A program made the position numbers and the translations under genes. A model generated the notes under the pieces. It did not search any database. It was given only the letters and a program-made list of their open reading frames with translations, and was not told the origin of the DNA. Source: Scytonema sp. RU_4_4 (GTDB taxonomy: Bacteria > Cyanobacteriota > Cyanobacteriia > Cyanobacteriales > Nostocaceae). Taken from it: a stretch of 60,460 nt of DNA. Positions 54,567 through 60,460 of the stretch are shown here, piece after piece (within the stretch, counting starts at the first letter, position 1; the number at the start of each line of letters is the position of its first letter). Location: positions 1 through 60,460 of the forward strand of contig JAAUSC010000010.1 of the NCBI GenBank assembly GCA_012031965.1. The letters run 5' to 3'.

Positions 54567-56017
54567 TTACGCAAAAAGTTGTCTACGTAAATTAGTACGA
54601 ATCTCTTCCTGAATTTGGTTGAGGTTTCGCAATGCCTTAAAGTCGCTAATTTTAATTTGTTGAGCGCGATGAATGATTTCTTCGAGTTCGCTTCCTATTG
54701 AAATCGCATCTTTACTGTTGATAATGTCTTGTATCTTGCACTCGTGAACTTCCACTTCTTTGGTGTCAGCAGCAAAACGAATTGTCTTCACTTGACTTTT
54801 TTCATCTGGCTCAATGTATTCTGCAAGTACCTTACTACCAGATACTTCTATGACTGAAAAGTCCTTGACAAACCCATCATACTTACTAGCAAGTAACTTG
54901 TAGCTCATAGCGAAGACATTGTATTTGCTAGCGTGTTCTAGGAGCATTTCAAAGTTACGATCAAAGTCCTGTGGTCTTGTAAATACAAACACTCTAATGC
55001 TTTGGGAGTCTGCTGTATCCAAAATCTCTCTACCAATCGCCTCTGGCCAAAATTGCTCTTGATGATCTACAAGAGCTAGCGCTGTCACACGAGCTTTCCA
55101 CTCTTGTTGCATTTGGATAAGACGCTGTGGGTAAAGAACTGCTGGAAGGCGGTAATCTGAATTCACCGCCAAAAGTTGTTGGCGAATTTCCGTCACAGAG
55201 TTAAGAATGATCAGCTCAAAGCACACGTTCTCGCGAACGTATTTGTTAGCTTTTAAGTAGTTCTCTGCTTCTTTTATCGAATCAAGAGCCTTGGTAATGC
55301 TATCTTCTTCAGAAGACACTGACTTCTTTGGCACGCGTTCTAGTTCTTTTTGCCATTGGGGAAACTTGAATTCTACCCATTCCTTAGCTTTTTGTGGCTC
55401 AGTGCTCGTGATTTCCTGAAGCAGCTGTGCCAGTTCCTGTTGCGAGGTACCATAATTGCTGGCAATTGTGCTAAGACGCCCCTCAACCTTTCATCTAAGC
55501 GCACGAATTTATTGCTTAATCTTCCTGCCAGGAAACCAACTGCAAAGTTCACCCAAGGATTTTCTAAGCTACTGGGGGTTAGGCACCCTATAGCAAAATC
55601 CATCTTTTCTAAGTTCTGTTCTATCTCAGTTTGCCAAACTTTGCCTGCTGCTGGATCAACGGTACACACTCTAGTTTCTAACTGTGGATATGAGAGGATG
55701 CTGTTTTTGAGACTTTCAGCAAGGTGCTGACCATCCTCACCAGACCACCAAATCAAAACTCTTTGGATGCTTTGGGTTTGATACTGGGATGAAAGCATCT
55801 GCTGCAACTTTGCCAATTTCCCAGGACCGCGTCCGGGAACACCAAGTTTGTCATAAGCCTCTCCTAAGCGCTTGCGGACAGCGTTGGCAGAAATGTTGAG
55901 TTCCTTAGCTATGACTTCTATGGGTTTTTCTTCTAGAGCACGAAATACAACCTCAGCCTCAGCATCGGATAAACCTTGCGCTTTAAATAAATTTTGGAGA
56001 AACTCCTTCGTCACCAT
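54567..56017 (-). pseudogene. HTH-TIR domain protein gene, frameshifted
   Basis: The N-terminal frame (from 56017) encodes a helix-turn-helix (IAKELNISANAVRKRLGEAY, then GVPGRGPGKLAKLQQ) and a TIR_2-like domain at about residues 85-181. That domain has IWWSGEDGQHLAESLKN, GKVWQTEIEQNLEKMDFAIG and CLTPSSLENPWVNFAVG; Glu131 is the best candidate for a catalytic residue. After residue 181 this frame ends in nonsense. One base over, LSTIASNYGTSQQELAQLLQ continues seamlessly into the 255-residue downstream frame. A missing base at about 55471-55478 explains it; the intact protein would have about 483 residues. The C-terminal 280 residues match no family I know. Confidence 0.75.
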
Positions 56018-56054
56018 ATTTTTCCTAGAGCCTTCTCTAATGCCTCACTTTATT

Positions 56055-56134
56055 ATGCCGCTTAGCATTTTAACTTTACAGAAAAATAAGATTATTAAGT
56101 GCGGCATTTACAAAAATGCGGCATTTTGTATAAT
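56055..56134. promoter_or_regulatory. repeated TGCGGCATTT motifs and promoter between divergent genes
   Basis: Direct repeats TGCGGCATTT at 56100-56109 and 56117-56126 (17-base period) lie just before a plus-strand TATAAT at 56129-56134. An inverted ATGCCGC sits at 56055-56061. Their position between the HTH-TIR gene and the small membrane protein gene suggests an operator, possibly for the HTH protein itself. Confidence 0.45.
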
Positions 56135-56272
56135 ATAAATAACTCACAAAGTTGTGTACATAACCCAACCCTACTGCCAAACCTGCTTTGGTGAATTCCA
56201 AAGCAGAACCTCAGCTAGCATCTTTTAGAAATATCCATAGCTAATTTTCAATTTTGAGAAGGAGTCTCTCTT

Positions 56273-56473
56273 ATGGCGTGTCCTTTTAAGTGCAACTGTT
56301 ACAATTCACAAAATTGCTGTGGCGATTGCAATCAGTGGAATCCTCTACCAACTCCCCTAATTTTTATTCTGACGCTGCTTTTTGCTTTCTGGCTGAGTCA
56401 AAGAGTAGTTTCAAATGAGTCTCAAACAGAAGTGCCGAACCTCTTCAATCCCACCACAGAGAGCCGTAGATAA
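56273..56473 (+). CDS. small Cys-rich single-span membrane protein
   Basis: A 66-residue protein with an AAGGAG ribosome site. The N-terminus holds six cysteines in MACPFKCNCYNSQNCCGDC, a possible metal or disulfide knuckle. One transmembrane helix follows (PTPLIFILTLLFAFWLSQRV) and then a polar tail. It has no match I recognise. The strong ribosome site and following terminator support a real gene. It is divergent from the HTH-TIR gene and upstream of a peptidoglycan-binding protein. Confidence 0.6.
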   Translation: MACPFKCNCYNSQNCCGDCNQWNPLPTPLIFILTLLFAFWLSQRVVSNESQTEVPNLFNPTTESRR

Positions 56474-56516
56474 ACAACATTGTTTACTAGTTGTATGAAG
56501 AGCGGTTACATTCCCC

Positions 56517-56548
56517 AAGCCCCAGGTTTGTAACTTGTGGGCTTTTTC
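56517..56548 (+). terminator. weak hairpin terminator
   Basis: AAGCCC pairs with GGGCTT followed by TTT, 44 bases after the small membrane protein gene. Confidence 0.5.
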
Positions 56549-56590
56549 ATGACGCCTCAACTATGCCAGGTTTAATCTTAGGAGAGCTAA

Positions 56591-57433
56591 ATGAATAGAG
56601 TAACTAGGTTCCTAAACCTCTTACTTGGGATTACGCAACCCAAGCCTTATTTCCCAGAAGAAAAACAAGTGTGTGTGTTCAATAAACGTCCAATACTTTA
56701 CAGAGGCTTTACGCCAGAGTCTGTAGAGTTCTCCATCTATGAACTACAAGAGCGCTTGCAAGCCCAGGGTTTTCTCAGAAATATAAGTGGTCAATTTGAC
56801 TTAGATACGGAAGAGGCAGTCAAAGAATTCCAGAAAAAAAATAATCTTCAGGTGGATGGAATAGTCGGACCACTAAGTTGGGCTTGCCTTTTCTACCCAA
56901 GGCTTTCCCGCAGTCATAAAAGTATGCCCCCAGAATTGCAAGATGCAGTTAAAGAACTACAAAACATCCTGTACGAAGAAGAATTTTTCAAAAAAGAACC
57001 GGATGGATATTTTGACAAGGAAACCGAAAAAGCCGTTAAACGCTTCCAAAGAATTTATGGATTGAAAGACGATGGTATCGTTGGGGCTGCGACTTGGGCT
57101 GTGTTGTTGGGAATGAGACAAAGAATAGACAAAAGCTTTCCTAGGCTAGTTTATTTCCTACCACCTCAATCCTGGTTCTTATGTGAGCAATTTTTAATGA
57201 TTTTTTGCATCTTAGTGGGTGTTTATCATAGCCCTCTACCTGGCTCTCCTCCTAAATGGAATACAGCCTTAGCAACTGCCTATGGGCTTACTTATATAGT
57301 GCCTTTTTTGTTAGAGTATTTACCGCTGAAGCATTCGAGGCAGACAAGTTTACCGCTCTTGCAATATGCTCCCTACGTATTAACTGGTATCTTTTGGAAA
57401 CCAATTCTCAATTTCTTAGGGACAAAGTTTTGA
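56591..57433 (+). CDS. membrane protein with two peptidoglycan-binding repeats
   Basis: A 280-residue protein. Two PG_binding_1 repeats lie at about residues 45-100 and 112-168, each with the signature FQKKNNLQVDGIVGPLSW / FQRIYGLKDDGIVGAATW. C-terminal hydrophobic helices follow (FLMIFCILVGVY, ATAYGLTYIVPFLLEYL). No N-terminal signal peptide is evident. It probably associates with the cell wall through the repeats. There is no hydrolase domain. The next gene starts three bases after the stop, so the two are co-transcribed. Confidence 0.8.
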   Translation: MNRVTRFLNLLLGITQPKPYFPEEKQVCVFNKRPILYRGFTPESVEFSIYELQERLQAQGFLRNISGQFDLDTEEAVKEFQKKNNLQVDGIVGPLSWACLFYPRLSRSHKSMPPELQDAVKELQNILYEEEFFKKEPDGYFDKETEKAVKRFQRIYGLKDDGIVGAATWAVLLGMRQRIDKSFPRLVYFLPPQSWFLCEQFLMIFCILVGVYHSPLPGSPPKWNTALATAYGLTYIVPFLLEYLPLKHSRQTSLPLLQYAPYVLTGIFWKPILNFLGTKF

Positions 57434-57435
57434 GT

Positions 57436-57969
57436 ATGAAAAGCATCGAAGCTACAAGAACTTACCTACAAATGCTATCGCCCGATGAGCATAAACCAGT
57501 AACGCTTGTAAGCGCTCGCGCACACGTTACTCAGGTTTTTGATTGTCCTGCATCCTTTTACCGTTACCTATATTGTGAAGTTGGACGTGACTATCATTGG
57601 GTGGATCGTCGCAACTGGACAGATGAGCAGATTCAAGCACACCTGAGTCAACCAAGCATTTCATTGTGGGTGCTTTACCATACAGGAGCACCAAGCGGTT
57701 ACTTTGAGTTGCACCAATACGAGGATGGTTCAGTTGAAATTGCCTACTTTGGGCTACTTAAGGAATATACAGGACGTGGACTAGGTAAGTCTCTACTAAC
57801 AATAGCAATTGAGCAAGCTTGGAAAAAGGCGACTCATCGCATTTGGGTACATACCTGCACGTTAGATCATCCAGCGGCACTCACCAACTATATTAAGCGG
57901 GGATTTAAACCCTTTCAGCAAGAAAATTATATCGTGAAAACTTATGCTGAGGGGAATACAGCAACTTAA
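57436..57969 (+). CDS. GNAT-family N-acetyltransferase
   Basis: A 177-residue protein from the ATG two bases after the previous stop; the frame is open far upstream inside the preceding gene but that part is a shadow. IAYFGLLKEYTGRGLGKSLL is the acetyl-CoA motif A (T-G-R-G-L-G), and WVHTCTLDHPAALTNYIKRG is motif B. FYRYLYCEVGRDYHWVDRRN in the N-terminal half is typical of a GNAT subgroup. Substrate unknown. Confidence 0.85.
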   Translation: MKSIEATRTYLQMLSPDEHKPVTLVSARAHVTQVFDCPASFYRYLYCEVGRDYHWVDRRNWTDEQIQAHLSQPSISLWVLYHTGAPSGYFELHQYEDGSVEIAYFGLLKEYTGRGLGKSLLTIAIEQAWKKATHRIWVHTCTLDHPAALTNYIKRGFKPFQQENYIVKTYAEGNTAT

Positions 57970-58088
57970 GGAAATGATGTCTGAAATGAAGCACAGACTC
58001 ATATTAGCTTGTCTTCAGACATCGCATTTTACCCCAAAAAAGCAAAAGCCCCCGTTTTGTGGAGGCAATAAATGGACAGAGATCTCTA

Positions 58089-59689
58089 TCACAACTCACC
58101 TGTAGCCAGCATCTGAATGATACGAGGCGTTCCTGGGTCGAAACCACCCAAATCCCAAGACAGCGGATCATTCGGATCTACCAACGTAATCTGGTAAGGT
58201 GCAAGTGTAATGTAAACTGCCTTGATATTGGGATTTACTTTCTTGCGGTACTCTGCCAATGCTTGACTTGGATGCTTGTAACCTGCCCATGATTCACTAT
58301 CTGTCCAAAAGCAGATGACATCCACCTTAAACTTGTTTCTAATCATCCACTCGTAAGCAACAGACGCATCTGTTCCACCAAAGTTTTTGTTGCTCGCTTT
58401 GTGAACCGCTGAGCGAAAACTATCTTTGGCGGTGATACCCAAGTCGCAAAATTGAGTAGAAAAACCACGAATCGTATAGCTTTTCTCTGCTTTTGCTGTG
58501 ACTAGTGCCATTGTTGCGGCGACTTCACAACAAGTGAGTCCCATATCCGCAATTGGAGAAGCCATAGAACCAGACACGTCAACAGCGTGCATGAACACTT
58601 TGCCTGTGGGTTGCACGACATCGAAAGAGAGTTCCACTGCCTTTTCTAGAATGTCCACAATTTTGTGAACTGGCTTCCAAGTCTTCTTGCTACGTCCCAA
58701 TTTGCCGCCAGATTGATATGTTTTGAGTGCTTTTAAAACATCAATTGGGTGAATGCGACCTTTACGCAGATGTTCCTTGTTGTTGAGAACTGCTTCAACT
58801 CGCTGCAAGTTGACGGATTCATGAGATGCTAAAACACCTATTTCAGTGAGTGAACCCAAGTTACGCAACAACGCACCAATTGGCATTTCATTGAATAGCA
58901 ACTGCCAAGCAGATTTATCCATCTTGCCCACGGGTGCAGCCATTTCATGGGTTAGGCGTCCTTGGACAATGGCTTCATAAGTCTGATCTGGGTTGCGCTT
59001 GAGCCACTCATACCACCAAATCTGTGCTAACGCTGTAGAGGGAATTTCTATTGGCAAGACTTCCCATCCTTTGACGATCCATTCAAACAGCTGTTGATGT
59101 TCTTCTGTAGGTGGTTTGACGTGGAACAACCGCAAAGCATCTCGGTGGGAGAAGTCATAACGTTGCTGATACTTGAGCAACTGGTAAGCCAAACCCTTAA
59201 CATCTTCCCGTAAAAACCAATTTTTTCCAGCTTCGCGTACAACCTTACCAAATCCGCGTAGAGACTTGGTGTAGTTCAGCCATTCGTAAAAATGGCTCCC
59301 TGTGCGAACAACTTGCGGGAAGATTTCACCAAATGTTTTTTTAGCTTCTGGTGCTTCACCCATCGACAGCAGAACCAAAGCAAGAATAGGCGCGCTGTTG
59401 TTAATGGCGCGTCCATCACTGGCATAAAGAATTTCTTGCGCGACTCGCTCAGGATTTTTGGCGATCGCCTGTCTTATCACCGCAACAAAATCTTCTGTCA
59501 ATTCATTTTGCCAACATAATAAGTGCTTTTTGCCGTGCCAATGAGTAAACAACGCTGTAGCATCTTCCAAAGACCAGCATCGAACATCCAACCACCAGAG
59601 CGTCCTTGAATCATTTGCGATTCTCTTCCTGGAATCGGTTGAGTCTGGGGTGTGGCTGTCTTTTTTTGAGTGAAGAATTTATAGTTCAT
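58089..59689 (-). pseudogene. rsr: Ro60 (TROVE-domain) protein, single-base frameshift
   Basis: From ATG 59689 the frame reads MNYKFFTQKKTATPQTQPIP, GRSGGWMFDAGLWKMLQRCL, IGTAKSTYYVGK and then stops. One base later the continuation NELTEDFVAVIRQAI runs to 58089. A missing A in an A-run (plus-strand T-run 59506-59509) explains it. The joined product of about 533 residues is a bacterial Ro60 ortholog. The TROVE HEAT-like ring spans about residues 20-350 (ASDGRAINNSAPILALVLL). The vWA domain has the MIDAS motif DVSGSMAS. Ro60 binds Y RNAs and misfolded RNAs and aids RNA decay. Two tRNA-like RNA candidates lie directly upstream. Confidence 0.88.
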
Positions 59690-59724
59690 TGGTTTACTCC
59701 CAGCCCTTGCAGGCAAAAATCTAA

Positions 59725-59848
59725 GGTGGCGGAGCAGGATTTGAACCTGCGACCTCCCGTGCTTCAAACGATAACCCTCATTCTTCGTCCTTTTCAGGCA
59801 AGGGGTGAATAAGGATATAGGTGCTCTACCAACTGAGCTACCCGCCAC
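59725..59848 (-). ncRNA. tRNA-like RNA with long insert, candidate Y RNA 1
   Basis: On the minus strand: acceptor stem GTGGCGG with CCGCCAC; a perfect D-arm, GCTCAGTTGGTAGAGC; and a perfect T-arm, GCAGGTTCAAATCCTGC. The anticodon arm is replaced by about 75 nt that fold into a long imperfect stem, ACCT/AGGT at the base and an AAGG/CCTT hairpin at the tip. That insert contains CTTGCC, GG-x-CGA and TGAGGGTTATCGT, shared with the next element. No functional anticodon can be placed. Its position 36 bases before the Ro60 start, the tRNA mimicry and a GGGUUAUC motif resembling animal Y RNAs all point to a bacterial Y RNA. A disrupted tRNA is the alternative. Confidence 0.65.
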
Positions 59849-59907
59849 AAGTAAAATTCAAAATTCAAAATGAGAAGTTCAAAATGAGAAGAAAGAAACA
59901 TTTTGGT

Positions 59908-60032
59908 GTAGCGGAGCAGGAGTTGAAGGGAGCATCTAGTTTGAATCAAGGGTGTTATTTTTCTACGATAACCCTCAATAAATCGCCCCTTAACGGCAAG
60001 GTGGGTGCTTTACCAATTAAGCTATCCGCTAC
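59908..60032 (-). ncRNA. tRNA-like RNA with long insert, candidate Y RNA 2
   Basis: A diverged sister of the element 59 bases downstream. The acceptor stem is GTAGCGG with CCGCTAC. The D-arm is weaker, GCTTAATTGGTAAAGC, and the T-arm is degenerate. The insert keeps ACCTTGCC, GGGGCGA and TTGAGGGTTATCGT. Here AGGGTTAT can pair with ATAACACCCT. Conservation of the insert motifs with a decayed T-arm suggests selection on the insert (the presumed Ro60-binding part). It lies in the likely 5' leader of the Ro60 transcript. Confidence 0.55.
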
Positions 60033-60065
60033 GTATGACAATGAACTCCTTTGTGAACATTCGTT

Positions 60066-60104
60066 TATATTACACAATGTAGTGTGTGTAATATAAAGTG
60101 TCAA
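60066..60104 (-). promoter_or_regulatory. promoter inside a perfect dyad, upstream of Y RNA/Ro60
   Basis: On the minus strand TTGACA (60104-60099) is followed after 17 bases by TACATT (60081-60076). A perfect 10-bp inverted repeat, TATATTACAC and GTGTAATATA (60066-60075 and 60086-60095), overlaps the -10 and the spacer. This is the geometry of a repressor-controlled sigma70-type promoter firing toward the two tRNA-like RNAs and the Ro60 gene. Confidence 0.6.
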
Positions 60105-60460
60105 GGGGCTGGGGTGAAAAATTTTCTTCTAGCTTCTATCTCCGGATACCTACACAAGGCGCTTTGCTAGGAGGAACTTAAAGCTTCTGTGAAATTTTGC
60201 CAAGAAACATTTTTGGCAAATTGATAAATAACACAAATAATGTCCCCAATTTTTGCCAAGATGTATTATTATTTCCAAACACAGTCACTTGGCAGTTATC
60301 GGCATGAGTGAAAAAACAATAGAAAGCTATGGCAAGGGTTTTCTAGTGCTACTTTTGCCTATCTCGTTTTGATTATTTTCCTAGTTGCTACTTGGCGAAT
60401 TTGGCTGGGACTAATACTGTTCGTCTTGGCTTTCAACATCTGGCAACTCTATAAATGGCA
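60105..60460 (+). other. right edge: partial membrane ORF without intact start
   Basis: From about 60313 to the window end one plus-strand frame reads RKLWQGFSSATFAYLVLIIF, LVATWRIWLGLILFVLAFNI, WQLYKW, two clear membrane helices. A TGA precedes it and no start codon lies in frame. ATG 60305 (MSEKTIES) begins another frame that soon stops. A length error in the A-run at 60311-60316 would join them. The gene continues beyond the window. Confidence 0.4.

What the first reader, a model, noticed from the sequence alone, without database searches (positions are those of the whole stretch)
59725..60032. Tandem tRNA-mimicking RNAs next to Ro60: candidate cyanobacterial Y RNAs
Seen: two same-strand elements with tRNA acceptor stems and D-arms, and one with a perfect T-arm, but with the anticodon arm replaced by about 75 nt. 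The inserts share CTTGCC, GG-x-CGA and TGAGGGTTATCG in the same order. Known: bacterial Y RNAs are encoded near Ro60 and many contain a tRNA-like domain; animal Y RNAs carry GUGGGUUAUC-like sequence. Inferred: these are the Ro60 partners. In this layout the conserved arm would protrude where the anticodon belongs and the acceptor ends stay open, a form worth comparing with known YrlA RNAs.
Basis: partly seen in the sequence, partly recalled or inferred. Interest (0 to 1): 0.85.

Follow-up and report, generated by a model that had tools for sequence, protein, structure and literature searches.

The report
tRNA-shaped Ro60 partner RNAs in cyanobacteria
Next to the cyanobacterial gene for Ro60 (a ring-shaped RNA-binding protein that is a lupus autoantigen in people) lie small RNA genes that look like tRNAs carrying an extra Ro60-type arm, joined up in a circularly shifted order compared with the known bacterial partner RNA.

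Summary
Element 1 (59726-59848, minus) has 8-bp acceptor, D- and T-arms and a 49-nt hairpin with a GG-N-CGA bulge helix, GNRA cap and GGGUUAUC. Element 2 is a different, partly degenerate type without anticodon loop. Among 388 Cyanobacteriia genomes a covariance model finds such elements in 59 of 65 with Ro60 and 0 of 323 without. They look like circular permutants of YrlA, the known bacterial Y RNA: three phage units of YrlA layout align far better after rotation at the acceptor hairpin, and all 13 sub-threshold Rfam YrlA matches in nine cyanobacterial loci straddle two neighbouring elements. The anticodon triplet varies most while U33 and purine-37 stay, so decoding is unlikely. Best reading: Ro60-binding tRNA mimics with open tRNA-type ends and a capped Ro60 stem. 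Expression, Ro60 binding and effector partner are untested. A new variant of a known kind; the key prior papers were not held.

The parts
59726..59848 (-). Element 1 (type 1): tRNA-topology Y RNA, 123 nt from G-1 to C73
   Evidence: Model R1 132.5 bits (the window sequence is one of the 61 training rows); RF00005 44.6 bits
59841..59848 (-). Acceptor stem 5' strand of element 1 (8 nt incl. G-1)
   Evidence: 8-bp pairing; all 8 pairs have a change on both sides in A1, several through two rows only
59726..59733 (-). Acceptor stem 3' strand of element 1
   Evidence: pair of G-1 with nt 73 standard in 60 of 61 rows
59823..59838 (-). D-arm of element 1
   Evidence: 98.0% of cells paired, 3 of 4 pairs with double changes
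59771..59819 (-). 49-nt Y hairpin inserted between tRNA nt 28 and 29
   Evidence: alignment, helices 4 and 5 (94.1% and 99.5% of cells paired); fold
59785..59801 (-). Bulge helix UUG-CC-U / A-GG-N-CGA with GNRA tetraloop, candidate Ro60-binding site
   Evidence: 99.5% of cells paired; GNRA cap in 137 of 160 parsed elements
59756..59770 (-). nt 29-43: 3' part of the anticodon arm with 7-nt loop UUGAAGC (anticodon GAA)
   Evidence: rows of A1 selected for this helix; not selected
59734..59750 (-). T-arm of element 1
   Evidence: 99.3% of cells paired
59908..60032 (-). Element 2 (type 2): 8-bp acceptor, D-arm, two successive hairpins, degenerate T-arm
   Evidence: alignment A3, 27 rows of 34 found; R1 only 29.6 bits, at the level of ordinary tRNAs
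59983..59999 (-). Element 2 hairpin a: CUUGCC-type bulge helix
   Evidence: 96.9% of cells paired in A3
59946..59978 (-). Element 2 hairpin b: UUGAGGGU pairing with downstream ACCCUUGA (strand-swapped upper helix)
   Evidence: 94.9% of cells paired, 2 of 8 pairs with double changes
59904..59907 (-). ACCA after the acceptor stem of element 2
   Evidence: sequence
58089..59689 (-). Ro60 gene (TROVE + vWA); open frame 58089-59591, N-terminal part from an ATG at 59689 in another frame
60076..60104 (-). Promoter-like TTGACA-17-TACATT upstream of element 2
   Evidence: consensus match only; 3 promoter-like sites found in the stretch, mean 1.2 in shuffles

Best explanation
These are the Y RNAs of cyanobacterial Ro60: tRNA mimics whose Ro60-binding hairpin is inserted in the anticodon stem. 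They are circular permutants of YrlA. In YrlA the 5' and 3' ends form the Ro60 stem and the acceptor stem is closed by a small loop; here the acceptor ends are open as in a tRNA and the Ro60 stem is closed by a GNRA tetraloop. Probable working: transcribed with the Ro60 mRNA, trimmed at the acceptor end by the ordinary tRNA end-processing enzymes, bound by Ro60 through the bulge helix plus the GGUUAUC strand, with the tRNA-shaped body pointing away as effector that docks a tRNA-recognising partner (PNPase by analogy with RYPER, or tRNA-modifying or tRNA-cleaving enzymes). Shown by sequence: architecture, covariation, Ro60 co-occurrence, and the rotated match to YrlA-layout units. Inferred: transcription, processing, Ro60 binding. 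Least certain: the identity of the partner.
For: Co-occurrence in a class-level sample of 388 genomes: R1 at E<=1e-10 in 59 of 65 TROVE+ and 0 of 323 TROVE-; in 145 family genomes, a sample that overlaps the first, 72 of 77 and 1 of 68 (counted from the tables at a cut of 1e-10 that I chose). Covariation: 20 of 38 pairs with double changes; none of 500 shuffles as high on any of five measures. Not selected on the anticodon arm: 83 of 106 with full split stem and 7-nt loop, U33 in 82 of 83, purine 37 in 83 of 83. Permutation: three phage units score -0.6, -4.0 and -0.9 as written but 23.7, 15.6 and 30.5 after rotation, the best rotations lying in the acceptor hairpin; 13 of 13 Rfam YrlA matches in nine cyanobacterial loci straddle two neighbouring elements (against 44, 90, 102). 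Ends: GNRA cap in 137 of 160; with acceptor pairing not asked for, own acceptor 8/8 in 106 of 116, and in 48 adjacent cases better than the next neighbour's in 36, equal in 11, worse in 1.
Against: No transcript or binding data. Six of 65 TROVE+ class genomes lack an R1 match (G028, G055, G126, G169, G184, G325) and five of 77 family genomes (G028, G030, G055, G085, G126). G055 has other-type elements, G028 and G030 gave only Ro60 fragments, G126 has a divergent Ro60, but G085 has a full-length Ro60 with no match in the stretch held (L067); G169, G184 and G325 were not inspected. The genome search scores few candidates per genome with strict filters, so weak elements can be missed. In tandem arrays a YrlA read across two elements remains possible: the neighbour's acceptor pairs at 7-8 of 8 in 25 of 48 cases. 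Rfam YrlA reached its gathering score (69) nowhere in the loci given: best 50.6 in cyanobacteria and 42.2 in phages; and it gave no match at E<=0.05 in L229 and L231, which hold two of the three units rotated, so their YrlA name rests on layout. Anticodon loops with U33 and purine 37 are what a functional tRNA would also have.
Confidence: 0.8

Rival explanations
1. Ordinary tRNA genes with a 49-nt intron-like insert that is spliced out to give decoding tRNAs.
For: In-silico removal of the hairpin gives sequences that ARAGORN calls tRNA in 83 of 84 cases, against 0 of 84 unexcised (these 84 had been chosen for a full split stem). With introns allowed it calls intron-bearing tRNAs in the rows printed before the output was cut. 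9 of 34 distinct loops are identical to a loop of a real tRNA of the window's genome (null mean 6%, 0 of 2000 as high).
Against: The insert is about as conserved as the tRNA body (mean entropy Y arm 0.36, T-arm 0.31, D-arm 0.39 bits; TTAT 0.0) while the anticodon triplet is near saturation (1.68-1.98 of 2 bits) and differs between Brasilonema orthologues (GAA, TCA, GAG). Triplet positions differ 4.5 times as often as the rest in 21 disjoint pairs, though 13 of the 21 pairs keep the triplet. The genome has an ordinary tRNA-Phe(GAA) among the 40 tRNA stretches taken, and gave no RtcB match (draft genome). Types 2 and 3 leave no anticodon arm. Closed-acceptor phage and plasmid units, which cannot be tRNAs, show a 3-bp, 7-nt stem-loop at this place in 6 of 13, with U33 and purine 37 in 4 of 13.
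Confidence: 0.07
2. Canonical YrlA RNAs encoded across neighbouring elements: Ro60 stem open, acceptor closed by the spacer; the tRNA-like framing is only apparent.
For: 13 of 13 YrlA matches in nine array loci straddle neighbours, best E 2.2e-8, weakest 0.96.
Against: Four other Brasilonema-genus genomes (six loci, two of the genomes seen twice) hold a single element by the pattern used. The hairpin is closed by a GNRA tetraloop in 137 of 160. Own acceptor pairs better than the next neighbour's in 36 of 48 adjacent cases, worse in 1. Spacers run from 14 to 314 nt.
Confidence: 0.08
3. The anticodon loops are bait: Ro60-tethered tRNA decoys that absorb or report anticodon nucleases, with fast-changing triplets.
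For: Triplet hypervariable with U33 and purine 37 kept; 19 anticodons in 83 elements; in Salmonella the rsr-yrlBA-rtcBA operon answers to tRNA cleavage and its authors suggest YrlA as a competitive inhibitor of the nuclease (PMC7790460, passages read).
Against: The same paper reports that fragments of YrlA itself were not detected. No nuclease pairing was tested here; RtcB is common in the family (128 of 145). Free variation would look similar: loop positions 32 and 38 are also variable (1.36 and 1.59 bits).
Confidence: 0.2

Closest known systems
Bacterial Y RNA YrlA (Rfam RF02553; described from Salmonella, mycobacteria and others)
   Same: Encoded beside Ro60; Ro60-type stem with GGUUAUC; tRNA-like D, T and acceptor arms; shared junction sequences (GCGCTAAAC and GGTTATC) with the actinophage units read here.
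   Different: Circularly permuted: acceptor open and Ro60 stem capped. Below the RF02553 gathering score, and only straddling matches. Variable 7-nt anticodon loop kept in type 1.
Deinococcus Y RNA in RYPER (Rsr-Y RNA-PNPase)
   Same: Proposed use as a tether between Ro60 and an effector (PMC8394870, PMC4726728, passages read).
   Different: No evidence here for PNPase; ends and topology differ.
Animal Y RNA (Rfam RF00019, accession recalled)
   Different: No tRNA body; no animal Y RNA match in the stretches scanned. [quoted passage not shown]
tRNA (RF00005)
   Same: Acceptor, D, T and anticodon loop; element 1 passes the tRNA gathering score (44.6 v 29).
   Different: Hairpin within the anticodon stem, 8-bp acceptor, triplet not conserved.

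Membership tests
Bacterial Y RNA / YrlA | Gene next to a Ro60 gene | tested here: met
   155 of 160 parsed elements upstream, same strand, in stretches fetched around Ro60; 59/65 v 0/323 genomes
Bacterial Y RNA / YrlA | Ro60-type stem with bulge and conserved strand | tested here: met
   Sequence and covariation only; actual Ro60 binding not testable
Bacterial Y RNA / YrlA | tRNA-like D, T and acceptor arms | tested here: met
   98.0-99.6% of cells paired in these helices in A1
Bacterial Y RNA / YrlA | Ro60 stem formed by pairing of the RNA's 5' and 3' ends (PMC8394870) | tested here: not met
   By sequence: stem capped by GNRA, own acceptor strands pair; ends not mapped
Bacterial Y RNA / YrlA | Reaches RF02553 gathering score as one contiguous element | tested here: not met
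   Best 50.6 of 69 and only across two elements; none in 56000-60460 of the window at E<=5
Bacterial Y RNA / YrlA | Tethers Ro60 to PNPase; modified by DusA/TruB | not testable with these tools
   needs biochemistry
tRNA | Contiguous anticodon arm | tested here: not met
   ARAGORN without introns 0 of 84 unexcised
tRNA | Conserved anticodon within orthologues | tested here: not met
   GAA/TCA/GAG among Brasilonema orthologues; 8 of 21 disjoint close pairs differ
tRNA | Aminoacylation | not testable with these tools
   needs acid-gel northern
Animal Y RNA | Match to the Rfam animal Y RNA family | tested here: not met
   no match in the stretches scanned

The most novel reading that the evidence does not exclude
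Cyanobacteria carry an array of Ro60-anchored tRNA decoys in native tRNA topology: capped Ro60 arm, open acceptor, and a hypervariable anticodon loop that baits or senses anticodon nucleases. Tandem arrays of these would also be the route by which the circularly permuted YrlA of other bacteria arose, so that bacterial Y RNAs descend from tRNAs with a Ro60-binding insert.
Probability: 0.18. Interest if true: 0.9.

Novelty: new variant of a known kind. Interest (0 to 1): 0.72.

Why it matters
It suggests the same RNA machine in two circular orders in different bacteria, which I believe is rare for a natural non-coding RNA. The tandem arrays suggest a route from one order to the other and a tRNA origin for bacterial Y RNAs. 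The fast-changing anticodon triplet inside an otherwise conserved RNA gives a handle on the open question of what the tRNA mimicry of Y RNAs is for. Picosynechococcus sp. PCC 7002, a laboratory strain, carries Ro60 on pAQ7 with three such elements upstream, one of them clear by the model, so it can be tested directly.

Tried and rejected
Plain spliced tRNA and canonical straddling YrlA were tested and set low (see rivals). Linkage to RtcB repair: RtcB is widespread in the family (128 of 145) and gave no match in the window's genome. The RNAfold minimum for element 2 disagrees with the comparative structure; I used the comparative one. Weak Rfam matches (RefA5, mir-1426, U4; E 0.7-4.7) are chance level. 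R1 at E<=1e-4 matches all 145 family genomes because it also finds ordinary tRNAs, so I used 1e-10, a cut chosen after seeing the table. My first acceptor control (own 8/8 in 76 and 7/8 in 12 of 88) was biased, because the parser asked for own pairing; one search repeats it without that demand and replaces it. No structure prediction was run. Literature: the papers by Wolin's group on bacterial Y RNA structure and distribution are not held, so what they list for cyanobacteria is unknown to me; in the listings of my searches I saw no title or abstract start on cyanobacterial or permuted Y RNAs, and the passages read in seven papers name none.

Rows dropped: A1 was built from elements that passed the 5/5 split-stem filter plus some with a 6-nt loop, thinned for similarity to 62, of which I left one out (L049, short) to give 61; its counts for that helix are biased, and one search is the unbiased test. 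Of 175 parsed candidates 169 passed the Y-core filter, 163 unique; later scripts used 154 unique or 160 with repeats. A3 holds 27 of 34 type 2 elements found. The loci given to searches were my choice. The stems were scored over nine registers without a null.

Full report
What is in the window. Two RNA-like elements lie on the minus strand at 59726-59848 and 59908-60032, followed by the Ro60 gene (vWA_Ro60 E 1.9e-37, TROVE E 7e-20). By Ro60 identity the genus is probably Brasilonema (93% to Brasilonema sp. UFV-L1). ARAGORN without introns calls neither element. Rfam calls element 1 a tRNA with an insertion (44.6 bits) and does not call element 2.

Anatomy of element 1. The RNA reads: 8-bp acceptor (G-1:C73), D-arm, nt 26-28, a 49-nt hairpin, nt 29-31, a 7-nt anticodon loop UUGAAGC, nt 39-43, variable loop, T-arm, acceptor. 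The hairpin has an upper helix of up to 10 bp, an internal loop (5 nt against 1), a short helix with one bulged base (UUG-CC / GG-N-CGA) and a GNRA tetraloop; the strand after the upper helix is UUAUC (fold, alignment).

Comparative test. TROVE is found in 77 of 145 Nostocaceae-family genomes; I took stretches around these hits. Elements were parsed by Y core, D-arm, T-arm and acceptor only. Of 106 with class-I spacing, 83 have a full 5-bp split anticodon stem with a 7-nt loop; shuffling gives 1.7%. U33 is kept in 82 of 83 and a purine at 37 in 83 of 83; there are 34 loops and 19 anticodons. On A1 (61 rows, selected for that stem) 97.5% of cells pair and 20 of 38 pairs show double changes, beyond all 500 shuffles and all slid versions. 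Nt 28-42 appears as CG 34, UA 26, GC 1, and nt 31-39 as AU 27, CG 25, UA 8, GC 1. In several rows where nt 41 is C, a partner G stands on the other side of the insert (CCG|GC with GCCGG), so the stem is kept while the insertion point slides by one.

Other architectures. In 29 elements the hairpin sits inside the anticodon loop, on a stem paired 5 of 5 in 22 and 4 of 5 in 7 (best of nine registers, no null). Type 2 (element 2; 27 of 34 found were aligned) has the bulge helix as one hairpin and the upper helix formed with a downstream strand; the window copy has a broken T-stem. Type 3, within 400 nt downstream of Ro60 in 35 of 78 loci, has the Y arm in place of the D-arm; the pattern does not find it in the window.

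Co-occurrence with Ro60. R1, a covariance model from A1, at E<=1e-10 matches 59 of 388 Cyanobacteriia genomes; TROVE matches 65. All 59 are among the 65, and 0 of the 323 without TROVE match. In the family sample, which overlaps that one, it is 72 of 77 and 1 of 68 (counted from the tables; the exception is G106). Of the five family misses G028 and G030 gave only Ro60 fragments, G055 has other-type elements, G126 has a divergent Ro60, and G085 is a plain exception. Elements are also upstream of Ro60 in named members of other groups, such as Prochloron, Symploca, Aliterella and Gloeocapsa, and on plasmid pAQ7 of Picosynechococcus sp. PCC 7002: three by sequence, with R1 at 77.8, 49.3 and 42.9 bits, the last near the level of ordinary tRNAs.

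Circular permutation. In published descriptions YrlA has a large stem made of its 5' and 3' ends that binds Rsr, and a tRNA-like domain of D, T and acceptor arms (PMC8394870, passages read). I found such closed-acceptor units beside phage and plasmid Ro60 genes: 13 units by a simple scan of 12 loci, in 8 of the 12; a further unit, in L229, was recognised by its fold. Aligned to A1, one unit each from L231, L229 and L230 scores -0.6, -4.0 and -0.9 as written and 23.7, 15.6 and 30.5 when rotated to start at the acceptor; over all rotations the best cuts lie in the acceptor hairpin. For L231, 100 shuffles of the rotated unit gave mean -4.2, highest 6.7. Independently, Rfam's YrlA model gives 13 matches in nine cyanobacterial loci (3 at E<=0.05, 10 at E<=1, best 2.2e-8, weakest 0.96); each runs from the second half of one element into the first half of the next, by coordinates. 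That is what a permuted tandem array predicts. None reaches the gathering score. Of five phage loci the model matches three (L230, L264, L265), also below that score, and gives nothing at E<=0.05 in L229 and L231, so the YrlA label of those two rests on layout.

Which order is real in cyanobacteria. Four other Brasilonema-genus genomes (six loci) show a single element by the pattern used. The hairpin is capped by GNRA in 137 of 160 elements. With acceptor pairing not asked for, 106 of 116 elements pair 8 of 8 with their own partner strand and 7 more pair 7 of 8; in 48 adjacent cases own pairing is better than with the next element in 36, equal in 11 and worse in 1. So the open-acceptor form is favoured, although end mapping is needed.

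Why not a decoding tRNA. Removal of the hairpin in silico makes 83 of 84 elements callable as tRNAs, and with introns allowed ARAGORN calls intron-bearing tRNAs in the rows printed before the output was cut, so the intron reading deserved a test. Against it: the anticodon triplet is the most variable part (1.68-1.98 bits) while the Y arm (0.36) and T-arm (0.31) are conserved. The triplet differs at 14 of 63 positions against 120 of 2468 elsewhere in 21 disjoint pairs (rows thinned for similarity), although only 8 of the 21 pairs differ in it; in 117 overlapping pairs the figures are 0.356 for the triplet, 0.098 for other unpaired positions and 0.063 for all positions outside the loop. Brasilonema orthologues carry GAA, TCA or GAG. 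The genome has an ordinary tRNA-Phe(GAA). Units with joined acceptor ends show a 3-bp, 7-nt stem-loop in 6 of 13, and with U33 and purine 37 in 4 of 13, where shuffles give 0-5.4%.

Mechanism and confidence. I hold at 0.8 that these are Ro60 partner RNAs of permuted YrlA type. The effector role is inferred: RYPER-like tethering of PNPase is the nearest precedent (PMC8394870, PMC4726728, passages read); the decoy reading (0.2) draws on the variable triplet and on the suggestion in PMC7790460 (passages read) that YrlA competes for an anticodon nuclease.

Limits. No RNA data; genomes are partly drafts; the key surveys of bacterial Y RNAs are not held, so priority is not settled.

Noticed in passing
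window 59500-59520: The Ro60 frame is broken: the N-terminal part (ATG at 59689) is in another frame from the main open frame 58089-59591. Relatives such as L036 and L040 have one open frame. It may be an assembly error or a recent lesion.
   Followed up: partly
L032 (G126:C31:41500-51500): A divergent Ro60 (about 30% identical) lies within an array of 21 ordinary tRNA matches and has no permuted Y element above tRNA background.
   Followed up: no
L035, L038, L039, L042 and others, just downstream of Ro60: Type 3 elements: acceptor and T-arm kept, Y arm in place of the D-arm, in 35 of 78 loci; not found in the window.
   Followed up: partly
L034, L044, L045, L046, T-arms of elements: Some copies carry a short palindromic repeat (TACCCTTCGGG...) inserted in the T-loop.
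   Followed up: no
L230, L231, L232, L263, L264, L265, L269 (actinophages), L270 (Bosea plasmid): Closed-acceptor units of YrlA layout beside Ro genes, in L230, L232 and L264 more than one; 6 of the 13 units show a short anticodon-like stem-loop. One unit of L230 overlaps an annotated tRNA-Thr.
   Followed up: partly
G106:C319:632-875: Two permuted elements in a genome without a detected TROVE gene; perhaps a split locus.
   Followed up: no
L266 (pAQ7, Picosynechococcus sp. PCC 7002): Elements upstream of the plasmid-borne Ro60; the first has anticodon loop CUGUUAA and encoded GCCA.
   Followed up: partly
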